Virus record (IMG/VR): IMGVR_UViG_3300025687_000360
Location: 1 to 22,246 of that record
DNA: 22,246 nt
Strand: one strand, 5' to 3'
From: a virus
Below, piece by piece: positions 1-8,798 of the stretch (the first letter of the stretch is position 1; each line of letters opens with the position of its first letter). The notes under the pieces were generated by a model that was given only the letters and a program-made list of their open reading frames with translations, was not told where the DNA came from and made no database searches. Both the position numbers and the translations under genes were made by a program.

Positions 1-2414
1 TTCTTCATTGAAGATTGATTTTCTTTATCTTTCTGTGATCCAGCTAGAACCCCCACTCCAGCACCAGCACCTACACCATAAGCTGTGATTGGTTCATCCT
101 TTGGTGTCCACTCATACCATGTGTTTCCTTTTTCGTCAGTAACTTTTTTTGCACCATACTTCTTTTGAACATAAGTAGACAACTGTTTTTCATATATATT
201 GTAAAGGTCTCTATATTTTCTAGCAATCTGTGTTCTGGTATTTTTATTTAAAGCTTGTTCAACAACATCTATAAGATCATTATCCATGTTTGGAATTCGA
301 CTTAAATCAATTTTGTCTTTTCTTAAATCAATAAAAAATTTGTGGACAGGATCATCAATCTTTTCAACCTCAAACAAAAATGTATTTCTTACTGGAAATT
401 GAACTAGTTTACCAGTAAGAGCATACTCATTAAGTTCATATCCCTCTTCAGGACTATAGATACCAAGTTGAAGCACATCTCCCTCTTCAGTTTCATCCCA
501 AAAGTCAAACTTTTTACCTTTGACTGAAGGTATGTCTACTGTATTTACATCTTCTCTATATAACTTACTTAGTGCAGGATCAGGTTTACCATTAACAAGA
601 GAACTTTCATAAGCCCAGTGTTCTATTTCTGCTGCTGTTTTACCAGTCGGAATTCTAATAGATTTTTTTCCATCAAATAAAGCTTTTGCATTCTCTTCTT
701 GAACAATTCTTTCAAACATTGCTCTTTTAAATTGCTTTATTTCAGACTCATATGGGAAAGGTAGTCCACGGTCTCTTTCTTCTTCTAATCTCCATATAAT
801 ACTAGAAAGATTATCTCTTTGATCTCTACCAATTTTTAAAGCAAAGTTAGATAACTCTTGGTTTTCTTTAAAACTCCTAACAATTCCTACATAAGGTTCT
901 GCTAATCTTTTTTGTAAAGTGTCTGGTAATAGGGTTAAGGGAACTTGACCGTAATATCTTTGCTCTGGTCCAACAGGTCTATTGTAATTTACATGAAATA
1001 ATAATTCATTCCCGGTAATTCTATTAGTTGTAGTAAGACCTTTTTCAGCATTGTTAATAGAAAGATCGGGCCAGACTTTAGCAAATGTGCCATCTTTTAA
1101 TTGTAGGTTGTCAGGGACTTCTCTAAAGATTGATTCAATGGACTGATTCCATCTCTTTATGTCTGGCAGATTATTAAATAATCCACCAACTTCTGGATTA
1201 TTTTGAATTAGTGTATTACCTTGAATTGGATCACTTTGTAATTCAGAAACGTATCTTATTTCACCACCAACATCATCAAATACTCTTGAGTGACCAATAA
1301 CTTGAGGATTCTCCCAGTGTTTAGTTGTTCCAGTATTAAACGGAACAGTCCATAAATGTGACTCAGGATTTACATAATCACCTTGAGCATAGTGTATTCT
1401 ATCAAGACCTAAAATATTATAACGGTCGCTTACTTCCAGTCGCAGAGGAATTATATCTTTAACTAACTCTCTCTCGACATCTTCTCTTGATATAATAGTA
1501 GAGTCTGTTTCATTTAAAAATCTTCTAAGATTTGTTACGTCTAGTTCACGAAGATCTTTCTGTCCAAGAAGATCTTCTAAAGTAGCTCTTTTAATAAAAT
1601 TAGACTTAGGTAATCTTTTTAAAAGATTTGTTGTAAATTTTTTAGTTGTATTAGAAATTGTACCTGCTGGAATAAATGATAAACTGAACATTGCTGCTTC
1701 AGCAATATCTGGATCAATCTGAATCTGATTAATATTATTAACCTCTCCACTACCAGCTAGAGACATGCCAGCTTTTTGAAAACCCTCTGGTGCTTTTCCT
1801 ACAGCAAAGTCTTTTAAAGAAGCATCAGTAAATGCACCTACAGGAGATGGTCCAGAAATGTCTTGTACAGATCCATCACTCATCCTAGCCATGTGACCTG
1901 GAGTGGATGTAGTAGAAGAGGTTGAGTCTCTCCAAGATTCTAGTGAATCTCCAACATCAGTTAATGTATTACTAAAAGCTCTAGCTTCTCCAAATGGATT
2001 AAAGTTTTTTATATCATTTGACATCTTTACATGGATTCGACGTTCAGCATCAAGAGCTTCGTCTACTGTATCAAAAGATGGAAACTTATCAAGACCAATT
2101 TGTCTAGCTCTTTCAACAGATGCAACATCATCTAAGACTTTCCCATCTCCCCAATAACTTGGAAGAAGGTATTCTCTTCCTTCAACATTAGTAACTATAC
2201 CACGATAAGTAGTGATATCTCCGTTTGAACCAGTCATGTATTGATTAGAATCAAGAATTCTTTTATGATGAGAATAAGCTCTCATTTCATTTTGAGTCAA
2301 CATTCCATAATCAGGTTGATTCATTGAATTAAAGATATCACTCTTTATTCTATCAAAGTCCGCCAGTCCTGGTCTAATAAACTGCTCGTTCTCTTGTAGA
2401 AAATTATCTTCCAT
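1..2414 (-). CDS. Large phage protein with ELQSD-type polyvalent-like domain, partial (C-terminus off the left edge)
   Basis: An uninterrupted minus-strand frame runs from an ATG at 2414 to the window edge, giving at least 804 residues. The start overlaps the end of the preceding 1205-residue gene by 11 bases and has AGAAGG just upstream. I see an ordered set of motifs: HWENPQVIGHSRVFDD then ELQSD (residues 391-395), an IPTGKTAAEIEHW segment (about 588-600), and near the edge KKYGAKKVTDEKG followed by WYEW (about 751-769). From memory, this ELQSD / FPTGxTAAxIEG / YLxKKYxAKxITDxxG series recurs in very large multi-domain 'polyvalent' proteins of phages and conjugative elements. Its biochemical role is unknown to me. 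A Gly/Ala-rich hydrophobic run (AYGVGAGAGVGVLAGS) begins close to the edge. Position after the ejection proteins suggests an internal virion protein co-delivered with DNA, which is inference. The gene looks more A/T-rich than the capsid gene. Confidence 0.85.
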   Translation of the reverse strand, partial: MEDNFLQENEQFIRPGLADFDRIKSDIFNSMNQPDYGMLTQNEMRAYSHHKRILDSNQYMTGSNGDITTYRGIVTNVEGREYLLPSYWGDGKVLDDVASVERARQIGLDKFPSFDTVDEALDAERRIHVKMSNDIKNFNPFGEARAFSNTLTDVGDSLESWRDSTSSTTSTPGHMARMSDGSVQDISGPSPVGAFTDASLKDFAVGKAPEGFQKAGMSLAGSGEVNNINQIQIDPDIAEAAMFSLSFIPAGTISNTTKKFTTNLLKRLPKSNFIKRATLEDLLGQKDLRELDVTNLRRFLNETDSTIISREDVERELVKDIIPLRLEVSDRYNILGLDRIHYAQGDYVNPESHLWTVPFNTGTTKHWENPQVIGHSRVFDDVGGEIRYVSELQSDPIQGNTLIQNNPEVGGLFNNLPDIKRWNQSIESIFREVPDNLQLKDGTFAKVWPDLSINNAEKGLTTTNRITGNELLFHVNYNRPVGPEQRYYGQVPLTLLPDTLQKRLAEPYVGIVRSFKENQELSNFALKIGRDQRDNLSSIIWRLEEERDRGLPFPYESEIKQFKRAMFERIVQEENAKALFDGKKSIRIPTGKTAAEIEHWAYESSLVNGKPDPALSKLYREDVNTVDIPSVKGKKFDFWDETEEGDVLQLGIYSPEEGYELNEYALTGKLVQFPVRNTFLFEVEKIDDPVHKFFIDLRKDKIDLSRIPNMDNDLIDVVEQALNKNTRTQIARKYRDLYNIYEKQLSTYVQKKYGAKKVTDEKGNTWYEWTPKDEPITAYGVGAGAGVGVLAGSQKDKENQSSMK

Positions 2415-5400
2415 TTCTCATACCTTCTCTTAGATCTCTTTCAGAAATGTATAAACTACTTGAATCAGTACGTAAATCACTCTCTAATGTTTGCGGCTCA
2501 TGCCTATACTCTCGTCTTGTTCCTAGAACATCACCAAGATATCCCTGATATGCTGATCTAATACCAGGATTAAGATGGGCTGCTGCTTTAAACAGTTCAC
2601 CATCTGCTGCATCAGGAATTGCCTGTAAAAACTTACCAAATGTAGCAGTCAATGGTATAGGGTACATAGCAGAAGGATTAATCTCGTGAGTTCCAATAAG
2701 ATTATATCTCATACCTAAAGCAGCAGATACAGGCCATGACCCAGCACTACTCATTTCAGCACCCTTAGCCATCTGCATACCCATTCCTTGATCTGGTGGC
2801 CACTCACCATAACTAAAGAAGTATCTAAAGTCTTGTTGTGCTGCATATACTGGTAACATAGCTAGCATAGCTACAAAGACCTTAGTATCACCATCCTCTA
2901 TACGCTCGATAAGCTCATTTGTTTGAGCAGATTTAGCTTGAAGCCAAGAAGTATACTGACCAAGTAATCTAATTGTAGGGTCTCTTGATTGTACAAACAA
3001 GAGTCTATTGCCAACATTAGCAATCTTAGCATCACGTTCAGCAGCTTTATATCCTGCTCTTTCTAGAACAGTTCTGGCTTTAGGATTTCTAAAAGCATCT
3101 TCAAAGGTAGAATGTTGACTTAATATCTTAGCTTCTTCAGATGTAACACCAAGTGTTTCTAAATATTGTAAGTGTGATAGTGCCCTCTTTCCAGGAACTT
3201 GACCAGTAACTATAGACTTTGGAGAAGAGATAGCTTTCTGTGCAGAGATGAACGCATCTTCCATCCCTGTATTATAAGCATACCTTCTACTTAAAGAAGT
3301 AACTGATGTTAGACCAGATAGTGAAAACAACCATGTATTAAATTGCATCATTTTCTGTACATATGGATCACTACTATTAGTTAATCCGTGTTGAGCAGCA
3401 AGTTCTTGTTGAATAGCTGTTCTCTCTGAAAATCTCATATTAGCTGATTTATAATCCCACTTTCCTCGAAGTGAAGTGCTACCAAGAACTGGAAAATTCT
3501 TTATCATAGCTGACCAGTTCTTTGAGTTTTGTATTGGTTGTAATAAATCACCAAGAGCAGATATAGTAACATTAGGTGCTAGCAGCACTACGTTACTAGC
3601 TGTAGCCAGTGTAGTTAAGATTCTATTAGCCACTGGTCCAAGGGTGTTCTCACCATATCTACCAAAGAAGGAGTTAACTCCATTAATAATAGCTTCCATT
3701 TCTCGCTCTTCTTCTGGATGCATCATCTTACCTTGACGAGATCCATCATACTTTCTACGTACAGCAAGTAGTAATTCCTTAACCCCCTCCATACCTTTTC
3801 CAAAAGTTCTTGACACTTCAATAGAACGTACAGAATTCTCAAGAGTATTATAAACTACAGAAGTAGGATCATTGACTAGATATGGTTCTAGTATCTCTTC
3901 AATCTTAGCATTGATCACAGGGTCTTTTGTATGTAATATACGCTGACGTTCAATATGTACCTGAGTAGGAGTTTTTAATTCTATATTTCTAATAGCTCTA
4001 TCGATAGTATGATGACTAGAAAGATCTCCTGGTTTTGCTTTCATATTACCATCGGATACAGCTTTCTTTAGTCCTCTTAGTGTCACAATAGGTTCTAGTT
4101 GATATGCTTGAATGTCTTGAGCAATCCCTAAAGCTTTCTGATGTCTAGCACCCATATCCATTTTAGGATACATAAGTGCCATTACTTGATCCATAGCCCT
4201 TGTAAATCCATCAAAATCTTTACCTATCTCATTAGGATTATAAACACGAGTGAAATAATTTGGGATCTCTTGTGGAAATGTAAAGCCTGCATCAGTAGCA
4301 TACTTAATAAAGTATGTGTACATGTCTCTGACTTCTTCTGAAGCCCTTAATACTTCTGGATCAGTTGATTTACCATATCCTCGTAGTCGTCTAACAACCT
4401 CTAGTTGTTGTTCAGGAGACAGTTTTTCACGAGTAACTGGATTAGTAAGAGCATCATCAATAGCTCTATGCCACAACATTGTATTCTGATCTGATCTAGA
4501 TTCAACAGATTGATTACCAGCAGGAGCTTTAATTTTCATACCACCAAGAGAAACCTTAGCTCCACTTGGCATAGTTACTGACATCTCACCAAGTCTTTTA
4601 CCAGTATCATATCTACCGTGTTGATTGAAAAGAAGTCTGGAGAAAAGAGTTGTCTCGTTCCCCATAGAATTAAGTCTTGTTGCTTGAGTCATAGAAGTAG
4701 ACACATTAATATATCTAGCAGCAGTATTCATCATACCATGATAGCCAAGCTGTAGAAATCTCTTACTTGCATCTGTTGGTATATATTTACTTGCCATAGT
4801 CTTTCTATGCAATGCTCCTAAAACAACACCAGTCCACCCTAACATAATTGCTAGTGAATCTGGATCTTCGATATCAGCAGTGTCACCTAATAATAAACCA
4901 GAAGCTCCACCAATACCGCCATAAAAGATTGGTCGAGTTACATGATCATTTAACATAATGATCATACGGTCAGTTAAAGTTTGATTCTTAGCAAGTTCTT
5001 CCATAATCTGAACAACCATATCAGATTGAAGACCTGCTTGTTTCTCCATATATTCTTGTATCTTTTCTCGTCTTAAGGTTCTTATTGTATGGAGTTGAGT
5101 AGTATCCCATTTTTTCTTTGGTATCTTATTTCCATTAGCATCTACAGAAATACGATTAGTTTCATCTTTGATTCTTTTATCAAAGTATCTCAGTAGGCCA
5201 TTAAAGCTATTATCTTCAGATTCAACCTTAAGCCAAAGCTCACGAAGAGGTTGATTGTTTGTAACAATCTCCTCAAATGAATCAACCTCTTTTTGTGTGA
5301 ATCCATAACGAGATACTAATAAGTTTCGTCTTTCAGCAATCATAGCAGTAGATGGACTATATTGTGCTACCTTATTACCAGTAGCCATAAGTTCATAAAC

Positions 5401-6021
5401 ACCATTAGCTTTTTCTTGCATCCTAGCTTTGACTCCCATCTTAGAAGCAATCCATGGCATAACAATATTACCAACTGCTGCTCCGGTTAATCCAGCAACA
5501 GCAGACTCTCCTGCATTAAAATCACCAGTCTCACTTAATTGTCGGAATGTTGAGTAACCAGCAGCTTCTACACCAATAGCAGCAGCAGTTAGATTTCTAA
5601 CCCCAGCTTTTCCAGTATTTAATGCGACTGCTGCCCCCCTTGCTGGAGGATATAAACTGACAGGATCCATAAATGATACTGCTATATCACCAAAAATAAC
5701 TGATGGATCTTCATCATATATTCCACCAGCAAACTCTGGATAATCTTTATATAAGTTTTTTAAATACTCTTCCTGTTGATCAATAAGATTTTGATCAAAG
5801 TCTCCATCTTTCCAAGCAGCACTGACTACATTATAGATCATTGGAAGAAGAAATCTAGACTTAGCAGCACCATACTGAATCTTCCTAAACCTGGTTGGTT
5901 CTGGAGTTTCATTTGGATCTAGATTTGCTAGATCCATTAATGACATCTCATCAGGAGACTTATTACTTACTTCTTCTTGATCAGGAGGAAGGTTAGCTAA
6001 TTCTAATAAAGAACTATTCAT
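2404..6021 (-). CDS. Large internal virion (ejection) protein, T7 gp16-like role
   Basis: This is a 1205-residue protein. Its start overlaps the end of the 770-residue gene by 8 bases and is preceded by AGGA. Size and position match T7 gp16 (about 1318 residues), the last of the core proteins that form the DNA ejection channel. I see no lytic transglycosylase signature of the kind found at the N-terminus of T7 gp16. Two copies of SL(L/M)(E/D)LANL(P/D)P occupy residues 4-13 and 27-36 in an acidic N-terminus. Hydrophobic Gly/Ala-rich stretches occur near residues 174-195 and 363-405, around 795-820, and near 1045-1065 (AMLAMLPVYAAQ), suggesting membrane contact. The remainder is mainly predicted helical and charged. 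The role is assigned from size, gene order and composition, not from a recognised domain. It could alternatively be a tape-measure-like or other virion protein. Confidence 0.7.
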   Translation of the reverse strand: MNSSLLELANLPPDQEEVSNKSPDEMSLMDLANLDPNETPEPTRFRKIQYGAAKSRFLLPMIYNVVSAAWKDGDFDQNLIDQQEEYLKNLYKDYPEFAGGIYDEDPSVIFGDIAVSFMDPVSLYPPARGAAVALNTGKAGVRNLTAAAIGVEAAGYSTFRQLSETGDFNAGESAVAGLTGAAVGNIVMPWIASKMGVKARMQEKANGVYELMATGNKVAQYSPSTAMIAERRNLLVSRYGFTQKEVDSFEEIVTNNQPLRELWLKVESEDNSFNGLLRYFDKRIKDETNRISVDANGNKIPKKKWDTTQLHTIRTLRREKIQEYMEKQAGLQSDMVVQIMEELAKNQTLTDRMIIMLNDHVTRPIFYGGIGGASGLLLGDTADIEDPDSLAIMLGWTGVVLGALHRKTMASKYIPTDASKRFLQLGYHGMMNTAARYINVSTSMTQATRLNSMGNETTLFSRLLFNQHGRYDTGKRLGEMSVTMPSGAKVSLGGMKIKAPAGNQSVESRSDQNTMLWHRAIDDALTNPVTREKLSPEQQLEVVRRLRGYGKSTDPEVLRASEEVRDMYTYFIKYATDAGFTFPQEIPNYFTRVYNPNEIGKDFDGFTRAMDQVMALMYPKMDMGARHQKALGIAQDIQAYQLEPIVTLRGLKKAVSDGNMKAKPGDLSSHHTIDRAIRNIELKTPTQVHIERQRILHTKDPVINAKIEEILEPYLVNDPTSVVYNTLENSVRSIEVSRTFGKGMEGVKELLLAVRRKYDGSRQGKMMHPEEEREMEAIINGVNSFFGRYGENTLGPVANRILTTLATASNVVLLAPNVTISALGDLLQPIQNSKNWSAMIKNFPVLGSTSLRGKWDYKSANMRFSERTAIQQELAAQHGLTNSSDPYVQKMMQFNTWLFSLSGLTSVTSLSRRYAYNTGMEDAFISAQKAISSPKSIVTGQVPGKRALSHLQYLETLGVTSEEAKILSQHSTFEDAFRNPKARTVLERAGYKAAERDAKIANVGNRLLFVQSRDPTIRLLGQYTSWLQAKSAQTNELIERIEDGDTKVFVAMLAMLPVYAAQQDFRYFFSYGEWPPDQGMGMQMAKGAEMSSAGSWPVSAALGMRYNLIGTHEINPSAMYPIPLTATFGKFLQAIPDAADGELFKAAAHLNPGIRSAYQGYLGDVLGTRREYRHEPQTLESDLRTDSSSLYISERDLREGMRNGR

Positions 6022-8326
6022 TACTGATTCCTACTTTTTTTGCATTAAATTTGAAAGTCTCTCTATATTGTTGAACACCTCTTTCTCCAAACTGACTTCT
6101 AATTATGTTAACTCTGTTATAAAACTGAGCTGGATTGAAATTAGTAGTCTTGCCATTAGGATCAGTTACTACAATGGTGTGTATATCCATCCCATCTTCT
6201 ACATATAAAATGTCTTGTAGTAGTGAAGAAATATTACCAATCATAGAAGGTGAAAGATCCATATCTCTTAGTGGAATTCCTGAATCTTTACTAGCAGCTT
6301 TTGATGGAGTAAAGGTTACGTTTCCATTTTTCTGTTTAGAAAGCTTCCCTTGCATTATATTTGCAGTAGCTGCAAGAGCTTCAGCATGTGTTACATTTCT
6401 GTTTGTATTTCTATATTCATTATATGTATTTTTAAAATCAATTGAATATGTAGCTCTAGCAGTGCTGTCAGAATCGTTTTGTGCCCAAAACTTTCTCATA
6501 AGATCATAAGATGGATCATTAGAATCAACTAAACTAGAAACATATCCATATCCTTCTGCTGCTGTTTGTTCATCAGGTCTTCCAGGACTACCTGTAGGAC
6601 CAGCTACTGGTTGACCGGCAGCCAGTACCTGTGATCCCAAGGCTCGCATATCATATCCAAATACTGATTCTTCACCAGATGAGTTTCCTAGGGTAGCGGT
6701 GCGTACAGTTTCAAGAGTAGTGAACTCTTCTCCAGCAAGTCGGATAATCTTAAACTTATCCATAGGAGTAAGTGTCTCTCCTCTTTCTGCTGCTGCTGCC
6801 ATTTCAACAGCTAGTCTATTCTTTACATATCCAGAAAGTAATCCGTTAGGAATACCCATAGAAGCTTCTTGAGCTTGATATCCAGCAATCAAAGCATCAA
6901 AAACATTTTTTGATGTTTTAGCATCTTGGGATAGTTGTCTAGTAAATGCACTAGCAACAGCTTCAGCCTCTTCCCTTTGCTCTTTAGTAAGTGCAAGCTC
7001 TCCTCTCTTACCTTGTGTAAATAAATTGAAGCCTTCTAGATATTGATTCCATAAAGTTCCTTCTTTAATAGCTCTCTCTAAACCTTGTCCATCAATTTCA
7101 AAATCTTTGATAATAGAATCAAGAACCTTCATATGATATTCTAAAGGTAAAAGTCGGATCTGTCCTCTTTTAATTTCATTAGATAGTCTCTCAGCAGCTA
7201 TCTTCTCATTACCAAGAGCTATACTCTGACGTTGAACATGCATGTTTATACGAGCATTATTTAAATTTGCAATAGCCTGAGCATGCTCTATTGGAGACAT
7301 TGTACGATCTTTAGAGAACTGCCATGTTAGTTTATTATATTCTAAAACCCTAGCATTATAATCTAGTGGAGCAGTGGCGTTATTCCATCTAGCAACAGCT
7401 AAGTTAAGAGCAGCCATTTCTTGAGCATTTTCAAAATTAATAAGACCTGTTCTATTCTCAATATCTCTAATACTGATATTTAATTTAGTTAATTGATTAT
7501 TAAGTTCTTGTCCAGTAATTTCAGTAGCAGTTTTACGAACATTCTGTTCAGCTTGATCTGCTTTAGCAGCAGCCTCTCTATCTTGATTTTGAAGTCTATC
7601 TGGAAGATTTTTATTTTCTGTTACTGCTTTGAATAGATTTTGATTAGCTACCTGTCTATTGACAACACTACTTTCATGAGTGTCTTGAAGAGCTTGGTTC
7701 TCAGCAATAGCAACTTCTTGAGAAGCTTGTGAGATCATTGCCCATTTCATTTGTTCTGAAGGTTGTTTACCTTCACGAGCTACATATTCTCCAATAAATG
7801 CCAAAGTTCTTGTTCTAACTTTATCTGGAAGATCTTTTAATTCAATATCCTTCTCTCTTTGCTCAGGCAGAGGCATAGCAGGACGCTTAGTTATCTGCTT
7901 ATTAATTGCAGCAGAAAAACCTGGAGGATTATAATCAACACCAGTAGCTTCTCTCAACCAACCGACAAATGGATGTGGGCCTAGTGGTTCTCTATAATTA
8001 TCGAGAGTAGGTTCATCACCTGGATCAAAAGACTTAATAACCTTTTGTCGATTATCTCCTTCATTCATCCAGTTCTTTAATTGAACACGATACTTTGCAT
8101 CCTCTTGCCAATTCTTTTCAAGACCAGATGCTTTAGCTAAACTATAAAGGATCTCTTCATCACCCTTAGTCTGAGCAGCAGCATACTCCTTCTTACGTTC
8201 ATCCCAAGCAGTAAGAGATTTTTCATACAACTTCATCTGAAGTTCTTTATTATACTTATCATTTGCTGCTATATCAGCAGTACCTTGTTTTGCAGCACCA
8301 GCAAAGAATGCAAGTAGATTCCCCAT
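6014..8326 (-). CDS. Internal virion protein, T7 gp15-like role
   Basis: This 770-residue protein begins one base after the stop of the 156-residue gene, with AAGGG upstream. T7 gp15 has about 747 residues and occupies the same relative place between gp14 and gp16, so the same role in the ejection channel is proposed. A short hydrophobic N-terminus (MGNLLAFFAGAAKQG) leads into long helical, Gln/Asn/Ala-rich regions over roughly residues 170-420. Examples are ENQALQDTHESSVVNRQVAN and ALNLAVARWNNA, with no catalytic motif. Around residues 575-595 is a Gly/Pro hinge (AAGQPVAGPTGSPGRPDEQ) separating a C-terminal segment of about 180 residues. The 3' end overlaps the start of the 1205-residue gene, which fits coordinated production. 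Sequence-level homology to T7 gp15 is not evident by eye. Confidence 0.65.
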   Translation of the reverse strand: MGNLLAFFAGAAKQGTADIAANDKYNKELQMKLYEKSLTAWDERKKEYAAAQTKGDEEILYSLAKASGLEKNWQEDAKYRVQLKNWMNEGDNRQKVIKSFDPGDEPTLDNYREPLGPHPFVGWLREATGVDYNPPGFSAAINKQITKRPAMPLPEQREKDIELKDLPDKVRTRTLAFIGEYVAREGKQPSEQMKWAMISQASQEVAIAENQALQDTHESSVVNRQVANQNLFKAVTENKNLPDRLQNQDREAAAKADQAEQNVRKTATEITGQELNNQLTKLNISIRDIENRTGLINFENAQEMAALNLAVARWNNATAPLDYNARVLEYNKLTWQFSKDRTMSPIEHAQAIANLNNARINMHVQRQSIALGNEKIAAERLSNEIKRGQIRLLPLEYHMKVLDSIIKDFEIDGQGLERAIKEGTLWNQYLEGFNLFTQGKRGELALTKEQREEAEAVASAFTRQLSQDAKTSKNVFDALIAGYQAQEASMGIPNGLLSGYVKNRLAVEMAAAAERGETLTPMDKFKIIRLAGEEFTTLETVRTATLGNSSGEESVFGYDMRALGSQVLAAGQPVAGPTGSPGRPDEQTAAEGYGYVSSLVDSNDPSYDLMRKFWAQNDSDSTARATYSIDFKNTYNEYRNTNRNVTHAEALAATANIMQGKLSKQKNGNVTFTPSKAASKDSGIPLRDMDLSPSMIGNISSLLQDILYVEDGMDIHTIVVTDPNGKTTNFNPAQFYNRVNIIRSQFGERGVQQYRETFKFNAKKVGISNE

Positions 8327-8327
8327 C

Positions 8328-8798
8328 TTATAGACCCTTCATCATTAAACCAACAGGTTGTTTCTTCATCTTAGCTTCATCACTTCTCTTCTGAAGATCT
8401 TTCTGTTTCTTCATTTTATTACGAACCATACCCTCTAGTGTAGTTGGTATCTGTCTACTGTATACATAATCAATACCATTGTCATAAGCTACTTGTAGGA
8501 TCATATAGATCAGTGGCTCTAGAATTAATAGAGAGACATCAGTATTCCACATTCCATTATACACACCAACTTTTGAGATTAGTGTAGCAATATCAGCTAC
8601 TGGCATTCCTTTACGTAAGAAGTCAATCAACTGAACTTGATAGTCTTGTTCTGCCATTGACATCCATAGAAACCTTAGAACTTTATCTACACTAGAAAAC
8701 TTAGGTGGACGTTCAAATGGTAGCTTATTTTCAGGAGAGTTTGTTAGGCTAGCTCCTGGAACTGGATGATCATATAAAAACTGTTTTGCTTTTTCCAT
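8328..8798 (-). CDS. Conserved phage protein of unknown function (PVPGASLT family)
   Basis: This is a 156-residue protein. Its ATG shares one base with the TAA of the upstream gene (TAATG), so translation is probably coupled. The N-terminus contains PVPGASLTNSPENKLPFERPP, a pattern I recall (PxPGxSLTxEPxNxPWExPP) from small proteins in structural modules of marine myo- and podoviruses whose role is not established. The middle is hydrophobic and helical (VSLLILEPLIYMILQVAYDN, about residues 87-106). The C-terminus is strongly basic with several Lys-Met pairs (MKKQKDLQKRSDEAKMKKQ). It sits among the ejection proteins, so a minor virion component or assembly factor is possible, but nothing in the sequence shows which. 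Confidence 0.75.
   Translation of the reverse strand: MEKAKQFLYDHPVPGASLTNSPENKLPFERPPKFSSVDKVLRFLWMSMAEQDYQVQLIDFLRKGMPVADIATLISKVGVYNGMWNTDVSLLILEPLIYMILQVAYDNGIDYVYSRQIPTTLEGMVRNKMKKQKDLQKRSDEAKMKKQPVGLMMKGL

What the first reader, a model, noticed from the sequence alone, without database searches (positions are those of the whole stretch)
1..2414. ELQSD-type polyvalent-like domain encoded with phage ejection proteins
The motif order ELQSD, IPTGKTAAEIEHW and KKYGAKKVTDEKG resembles a domain I know from very large multi-domain proteins of phages and conjugative elements, whose function is not settled. Here it is encoded right after the gp15/gp16-like pair in a short-tailed phage. If packaged, it would be a candidate effector delivered with the DNA, perhaps protecting it or acting on the host early. 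The conserved His, Glu, Asp and Trp residues look enzyme-like.
Basis: partly seen in the sequence, partly recalled or inferred. Interest (0 to 1): 0.7.

Follow-up and report, generated by a model that had tools for sequence, protein, structure and literature searches.

The report
Divergent polyvalent-type domain in ejection cassette
A marine virus of bacteria carries, right behind its probable DNA-ejection proteins, a large protein with a distant copy of a widespread but uncatalogued domain whose typical members are predicted to fold like acyl-group transferases, so it may be an effector carried into the host cell with the viral DNA.

Summary
ORF 3-2414 (-), 804 aa and cut by the contig end, overlaps a gp16-like gene by 11 nt behind a good Shine-Dalgarno and contains ELQSD, IPTGKTAAEIEHW and KKYGAKKVTDEKG. 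The window is a fragment of an HMO-2011-like marine podovirus (portal about 52% identical to Pelagibacter phage HTVC115P). No Pfam, PHROGs or NCBIfam model matches the protein. It is nevertheless a divergent member of a very common phage domain, usually EIQSDWHQ (at least 120 IMG/VR stretches), also seen in giant plasmid and phage polyvalent proteins and, in pelagiphage HTVC028P, encoded between probable internal virion proteins. Profile comparison scores 49 against 17±3 for 176 decoys, but over only 37 residues; the C-terminal half is suggestive only. Pfam lacks this domain. AlphaFold of a typical member (pLDDT 86) gives a GNAT-like fold with a coiled-coil insert. The window copy keeps His366, Arg377, Glu391, Gln393, Ser394, Asp395 and Gln398, but lost the Trp and the [Q/R]xxG loop found in 55 of 58 relatives, so acyl transfer is uncertain. 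Relatives carry lysozyme, glucosaminidase or methyltransferase modules in this same slot. Packaging and ejection are inferred, not shown.

The parts
3..2414 (-). ORF of interest ('winA'), 804 aa, C-terminus cut by the contig end; proposed ejection-cassette cargo protein
   Evidence: SD and 11-nt overlap with upstream gene; no match in Pfam, PHROGs, NCBIfam, phages or plasmids
1410..1571 (-). residues 282-335, possible copy of the helical module that precedes the EIQSD domain in relatives (GvK.eEl.w.Gl...L....vTk.e)
   Evidence: MAFFT places it there, but hhalign of this part alone is at chance (rank 63 of 220): weak
1221..1325 (-). residues 364-398, TKHWENPQVIGHSR...ELQSDPIQ: beta hairpin and following loop with the family's invariant H, R, E, Q, S, D, Q
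   Evidence: hhalign score 49 against decoy maximum 25.6; pLDDT about 70-89 in window model
615..767 (-). residues 550-600, GLPFPYES...IRIPTGKTAAEIEHW, proposed equivalent of PDAPFKxxW...iawTTGeqqaeRY (predicted alpha3-beta5 of the fold)
   Evidence: hhalign and one MAFFT run; the other MAFFT run disagrees: suggestive
96..215 (-). residues 734-773, YRDLYNIYEKQL...KKYGAKKVT...NTWYEWTP, proposed equivalent of GMkgfYDKilp...gKkyGakv...iTPemr
39..77 (-). residues 780-792, Gly/Ala-rich hydrophobic stretch, as in many family tails (e.g. GAGAAGLGTAGLLATEEDQF*), which suggests that little of the C-terminus is missing
2423..2429 (-). Shine-Dalgarno-like GAGAAGG before the start codon at 2414
2404..6021 (-). 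gp16-like large late protein ('winB'), 1205 aa; homologous over most of its length to HTVC103P gp52, HTVC104P gp54, HTVC115P gp40
6014..8326 (-). 770-aa upstream protein, gp15-like by gene order only
8328..8798 (-). 156-aa protein in the position of a gp14-like or other small internal protein (gene order only)

Best explanation
winA is a late protein made together with the gp16-like ejection protein and most likely travels in the virion and enters the host with the DNA. Its C-terminal ~440 residues are a divergent copy of the EIQSD domain, an abundant phage and plasmid polyvalent-protein domain that is predicted to have a GNAT-like (acyl-CoA acyltransferase) fold with a coiled-coil insert after the EIQSD strand. 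By analogy with GNATs, the Glu of E[IL]QSD, on the strand that corresponds to GNAT beta4, with the nearby invariant His, Arg, Gln, Ser and Asp, would form the active or ligand site, and the protein would bind or modify a host or viral target in the first minutes of infection. Shown: the ORF, its position, family membership of the ELQSD region, the predicted fold of a typical member. Inferred: packaging, ejection, catalysis. The window copy lacks the family's [Q/R]xxG loop, so it may have changed or lost acyl transfer and act by binding.
For: Family membership. Same domain in an isolated pelagiphage between probable internal virion proteins (HTVC028P gp34), in metagenomic phages directly before a PHROG 'internal virion protein' (L117) or next to the portal gene (L044, L189), and in a giant plasmid polyvalent protein. 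Fold: AlphaFold of a 349-aa member, pLDDT 85.7; VIA-align best matches apart from coiled coils are nearly all GNATs (AtaT, KacT, TacT, NatD; Z 9.5, rmsd 4.2, 131 aligned); Foldseek top hits NatD, E 0.03, prob 0.89. Cargo slot: in 53 relatives the gp16-like protein ends in a 200-760 aa extension (35) or is followed at once by a separate ORF (17), with lysozyme, glucosaminidase or methyltransferase domains. Polyvalent-protein precedent: PMC5512222.
Against: No virion proteomics. The window model itself is poor (pLDDT 59, alignment partly misplaced; GNAT matches only Z 6.2). Foldseek gives no PDB match below E 0.001 and Z 9.5 is only moderately above the usual 7-8 for models without a clear match. 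No sequence profile links the family to any GNAT. The full CoA motif [QR]xxGx[GA] occurs in only 6 of 58 members, [QR]xxG in 55, the full motif not in the window copy. None of the 53 gp16-slot relatives carries an ELQSD protein.
Confidence: 0.5

Rival explanations
1. winA is a purely structural part of the ejection machinery (extra inner-core or channel protein). The EIQSD domain is an assembly or binding module without enzymatic activity, which explains loss of the Trp and of the [Q/R]xxG loop.
For: Position in the ejection cassette; hydrophobic Gly/Ala tail typical of membrane-active ejection proteins; loss of conserved residues in the window copy.
Against: Domain occurs fused to enzymes such as ART-PolyVal, and in plasmid polyvalent proteins, where no phage ejection channel is expected; strongly conserved polar residues.
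Confidence: 0.3
2. The EIQSD domain is an enzyme of another class whose predicted fold only resembles GNAT.
For: Foldseek E-values are weak, the complete CoA motif is mostly absent, sequence profiles find no GNAT.
Against: Nearly all non-coil structural matches are GNATs, with the order of strands and helices expected for GNAT.
Confidence: 0.25
3. The motif resemblance is chance and winA is an unrelated orphan protein.
For: No database hit for winA; only 37 residues align with significance; C-terminal half rank 3-9 of about 230 decoys.
Against: About 11 standard deviations above decoys; the conserved order of motifs ending in TP and a Gly-rich tail; same genomic setting as other members.
Confidence: 0.07

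Closest known systems
EIQSD(WHQ) domain of polyvalent and ejection proteins (no Pfam model); isolated example Pelagibacter phage HTVC028P gp34
   Same: Invariant H, R, E, Q, S, D, Q of the hairpin; motif order; 800-950 aa protein in the ejection cassette; hydrophobic tail
   Different: Window copy has Pro instead of Trp (HTVC028P has Leu), lacks GRxxGY, has long inserts; it lies after, not before, the large gp16-like protein
Polyvalent proteins of Iyer et al. 2017 (PMC5512222)
   Same: A domain shared by phages and plasmids, encoded among late virion genes, predicted to enter the host with DNA
   Different: winA shows only one recognisable domain; whether the EIQSD domain is one of the LPDs of that paper could not be checked, because its supplementary alignments were not available
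GNAT acyltransferases (AtaT, KacT, TacT, NatD)
   Same: Predicted fold of a typical EIQSD member (Z up to 9.5)
   Different: No sequence relation detected, coiled-coil insert after the beta4-like strand, canonical CoA motif incomplete and absent from the window copy
HTVC103P gp52, HTVC104P gp54 and HTVC115P gp40 of HMO-2011-type pelagiphages
   Same: Homologous gp16-like body; additional cargo at its C-terminus (methyltransferase-like and lysozyme-like, read from sequence, in HTVC103P and HTVC104P)
   Different: Cargo is fused rather than a separate ORF, and none has the EIQSD domain

Membership tests
EIQSD domain family | H-x(n)-H-x-R ... E-[ILVM]-Q-S-D-x-x-Q hairpin | tested here: met
   H366, H375, R377, E391, Q393, S394, D395, Q398; hhalign 49 against decoy maximum 25.6
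EIQSD domain family | Trp after EIQSD and GRxxGY following it | tested here: not met
   Pro396, and PIQGNTLIQNNPEVGG in place of WHQxGRxxGY. Not treated as excluding membership: HTVC028P gp34, a clear member by profile (239 bits), also lacks the Trp
EIQSD domain family | PFK..W, TTGeqqaeRY and YDK...KKyGAKv motifs in order downstream | tested here: inconclusive
   Aligned by hhalign and by one MAFFT run; score only in the top 1-4% of decoys; another MAFFT run disagrees
Polyvalent proteins | several disparate domains in one polypeptide | tested here: inconclusive
   Only one domain recognisable in winA; residues 1-280 match no Pfam or PHROGs family
Polyvalent proteins | delivered with the DNA | not testable with these tools
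   needs virion proteomics; genomic position agrees
GNAT superfamily | GNAT fold | tested here: inconclusive
   Typical member: Z 9.5 to GNATs; window model too poor
GNAT superfamily | acyl-CoA motif [QR]xxGx[GA] after beta4 | tested here: not met
   6 of 58 family members, none in the 200 residues after ELQSD in winA

The most novel reading that the evidence does not exclude
The EIQSD domain is a major uncatalogued class of GNAT-fold effectors that phages and plasmids deliver with their DNA, and marine podoviruses swap it with lysozymes and methyltransferases in one cargo slot behind gp16.
Probability: 0.35. Interest if true: 0.7.

Novelty: new variant of a known kind. Interest (0 to 1): 0.5.

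Why it matters
The domain is very common in metagenomic phages, yet has no Pfam model and no assigned function. A predicted GNAT-like fold turns 'unknown polyvalent domain' into a testable hypothesis (acyl-CoA binding, acyl transfer to a host target). The cargo slot behind gp16 in HMO-2011-type phages, an abundant marine phage group, would be a place to look systematically for ejected effectors.

Tried and rejected
tblastn of winA against phages (also at E 10 for the C-terminal part) and plasmids: nothing. IMG/VR scans with exact winA or winB peptides: no relatives. Scan for H-W-E/D-x-P...ELQSD followed by non-Trp: nothing. Scan for IPTGKTA: only unrelated proteins. A genome-contig scan gave one pattern match in Legionella that did not translate into the motif in my check, so it was not used. 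Second AlphaFold job (window protein) used an alignment that probably misplaced the middle of the protein; its model is not relied on. A Foldseek search of that model against viral structures was not accepted at the time. N-terminal module similarity is not significant alone. PDB sequence searches of winA, winB, the 770-aa protein and the EIQSD family gave nothing significant. A literature search for the string EIQSD found no phage paper.

Full report
What is there. The window is a 22,246-base virus record. Its portal is about 52% identical to that of Pelagibacter phage HTVC115P and 45% to that of Puniceispirillum phage HMO-2011, so it is a fragment of an HMO-2011-like marine podovirus. The late genes run on the minus strand: portal, capsid, tail and connector genes, then ORFs of 465, 156, 770 and 1205 aa, and finally the ORF of the finding, 804 aa, which runs off the contig. 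It starts at 2414 behind GAGAAGG and overlaps the previous gene by 11 nt.

Neighbours. The 1205-aa protein is homologous over most of its length to gp52 of HTVC103P, gp54 of HTVC104P and gp40 of HTVC115P (25-29% identity). Calling it gp16-like rests on gene order, length and the peptidoglycan-hydrolase cargo of relatives; no profile names it. A conserved block (GQ[FY]xSWxxAKxxQTN) retrieved 53 IMG/VR relatives. In 35 of them the protein has a C-terminal extension (about 200-760 aa after the conserved tail); in 17 it stops early and a separate ORF follows at once; one is undetermined. The added modules include phage lysozyme, glucosaminidase and methyltransferase domains by Pfam. The window phage belongs to the separate-ORF class, with a quite different cargo.

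The domain. No library matches winA. The collected domains share the motif order Y-x-E, H, HxR, EIQSDWHQxGRxxGY, PDAPFKxxW, TTGxxQxxRY, GGEGMKxFYDK, KKxGAK, ITPEMR. 58 members share no Pfam family, so a missing Pfam hit for winA says nothing. The domain sits in a Pseudomonas plasmid giant protein annotated as LPD23-containing, in a 1921-aa phage protein with ART-PolyVal, and in Pelagibacter phage HTVC028P gp34, encoded directly before a 'putative internal virion protein'. In L117 it is encoded directly before a protein that matches a PHROG internal virion protein. That is the polyvalent-protein pattern described by Iyer et al. (PMC5512222), who inferred delivery with the DNA from computation.

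Is winA a member? hmmsearch with the family profile puts winA first among 208 sequences that include 200 shuffles (E 0.001). hhalign gives score 49.2 against 16.6 +/- 2.9 for 176 decoys, best decoy 25.6. The match is the hairpin with H366, H375, R377, E391, Q393, S394, D395, Q398. Note that family rows were retrieved with E-QSD patterns, so invariance of those letters is partly by construction; invariance of H366 is not. For the C-terminal half the family motifs line up with IPTGK, YEK, KKYGAKK and WTP, but scores are only rank 3 of 220, 6 of 234 and 9 of 234, and one MAFFT alignment disagreed. The N-terminal module is not significant. I take membership as likely (about 0.85), with extent uncertain.

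Fold and mechanism. AlphaFold of a compact member with 58 sequences gave pLDDT 85.7. Its sheet and helices follow the GNAT order, with EIQSD ending the beta4-like strand and a coiled coil inserted before the alpha3-like helix. VIA-align lists AtaT, KacT, TacT, NatD and many other GNATs (best Z 9.5, 131 residues, 4.2 A); Foldseek ranks NatD first but only at E 0.03. In GNATs of the GCN5 type the general base is a Glu on beta4 (established knowledge), the position of the invariant Glu here (inference from strand order; no coordinates were superposed by me). However, [QR]xxG follows EIQSD in 55 of 58 members but the complete [QR]xxGx[GA] in only 6; in winA the sequence after ELQSD is PIQGNTLIQNNPEVGG, with neither. 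So a GNAT-like fold of the family is probable, catalysis by acyl transfer possible, and for the window copy doubtful. The window's own model is poor (pLDDT 59), although its 50 listed matches are nearly all acyltransferases or their relatives at Z up to 6.2; because its alignment borrowed the family and was partly misplaced I give this little weight.

Verdict. The finding is real and its family link holds; the effector role is a reasonable inference with no direct evidence. What is new, as far as I could check, is the link of a widespread, uncatalogued domain to a GNAT-like fold and the description of a variable cargo slot behind the gp16-like protein in HMO-2011-type phages. Whether the domain was already listed under an LPD number in the supplement of PMC5512222 could not be checked.

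Noticed in passing
L127-L179 (53 loci): Variable cargo slot behind the gp16-like protein of HMO-2011-type phages: lysozyme, glucosaminidase, methyltransferase and unknown modules, fused or as a separate overlapping ORF; many end in KKGGLLDKKRG or a close variant.
   Followed up: partly
L189:6673-12435: EIQSD domain and ART-PolyVal in one 1921-aa protein encoded directly after the portal gene.
   Followed up: no
PHROG phrog_7348; phages Nsp-JY18 and Mel-JY33: The PHROG labelled 'endolysin' (2564 positions) contains the EIQSD domain near positions 1750-1950; phage annotations such as 'lysin' may be carried over by this domain rather than by a lytic one.
   Followed up: no
L199:3463-3924 (HTVC028P gp37): A separate gene annotated 'putative acetyltransferase' lies in the same late cluster as the EIQSD protein gp34.
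   Followed up: no
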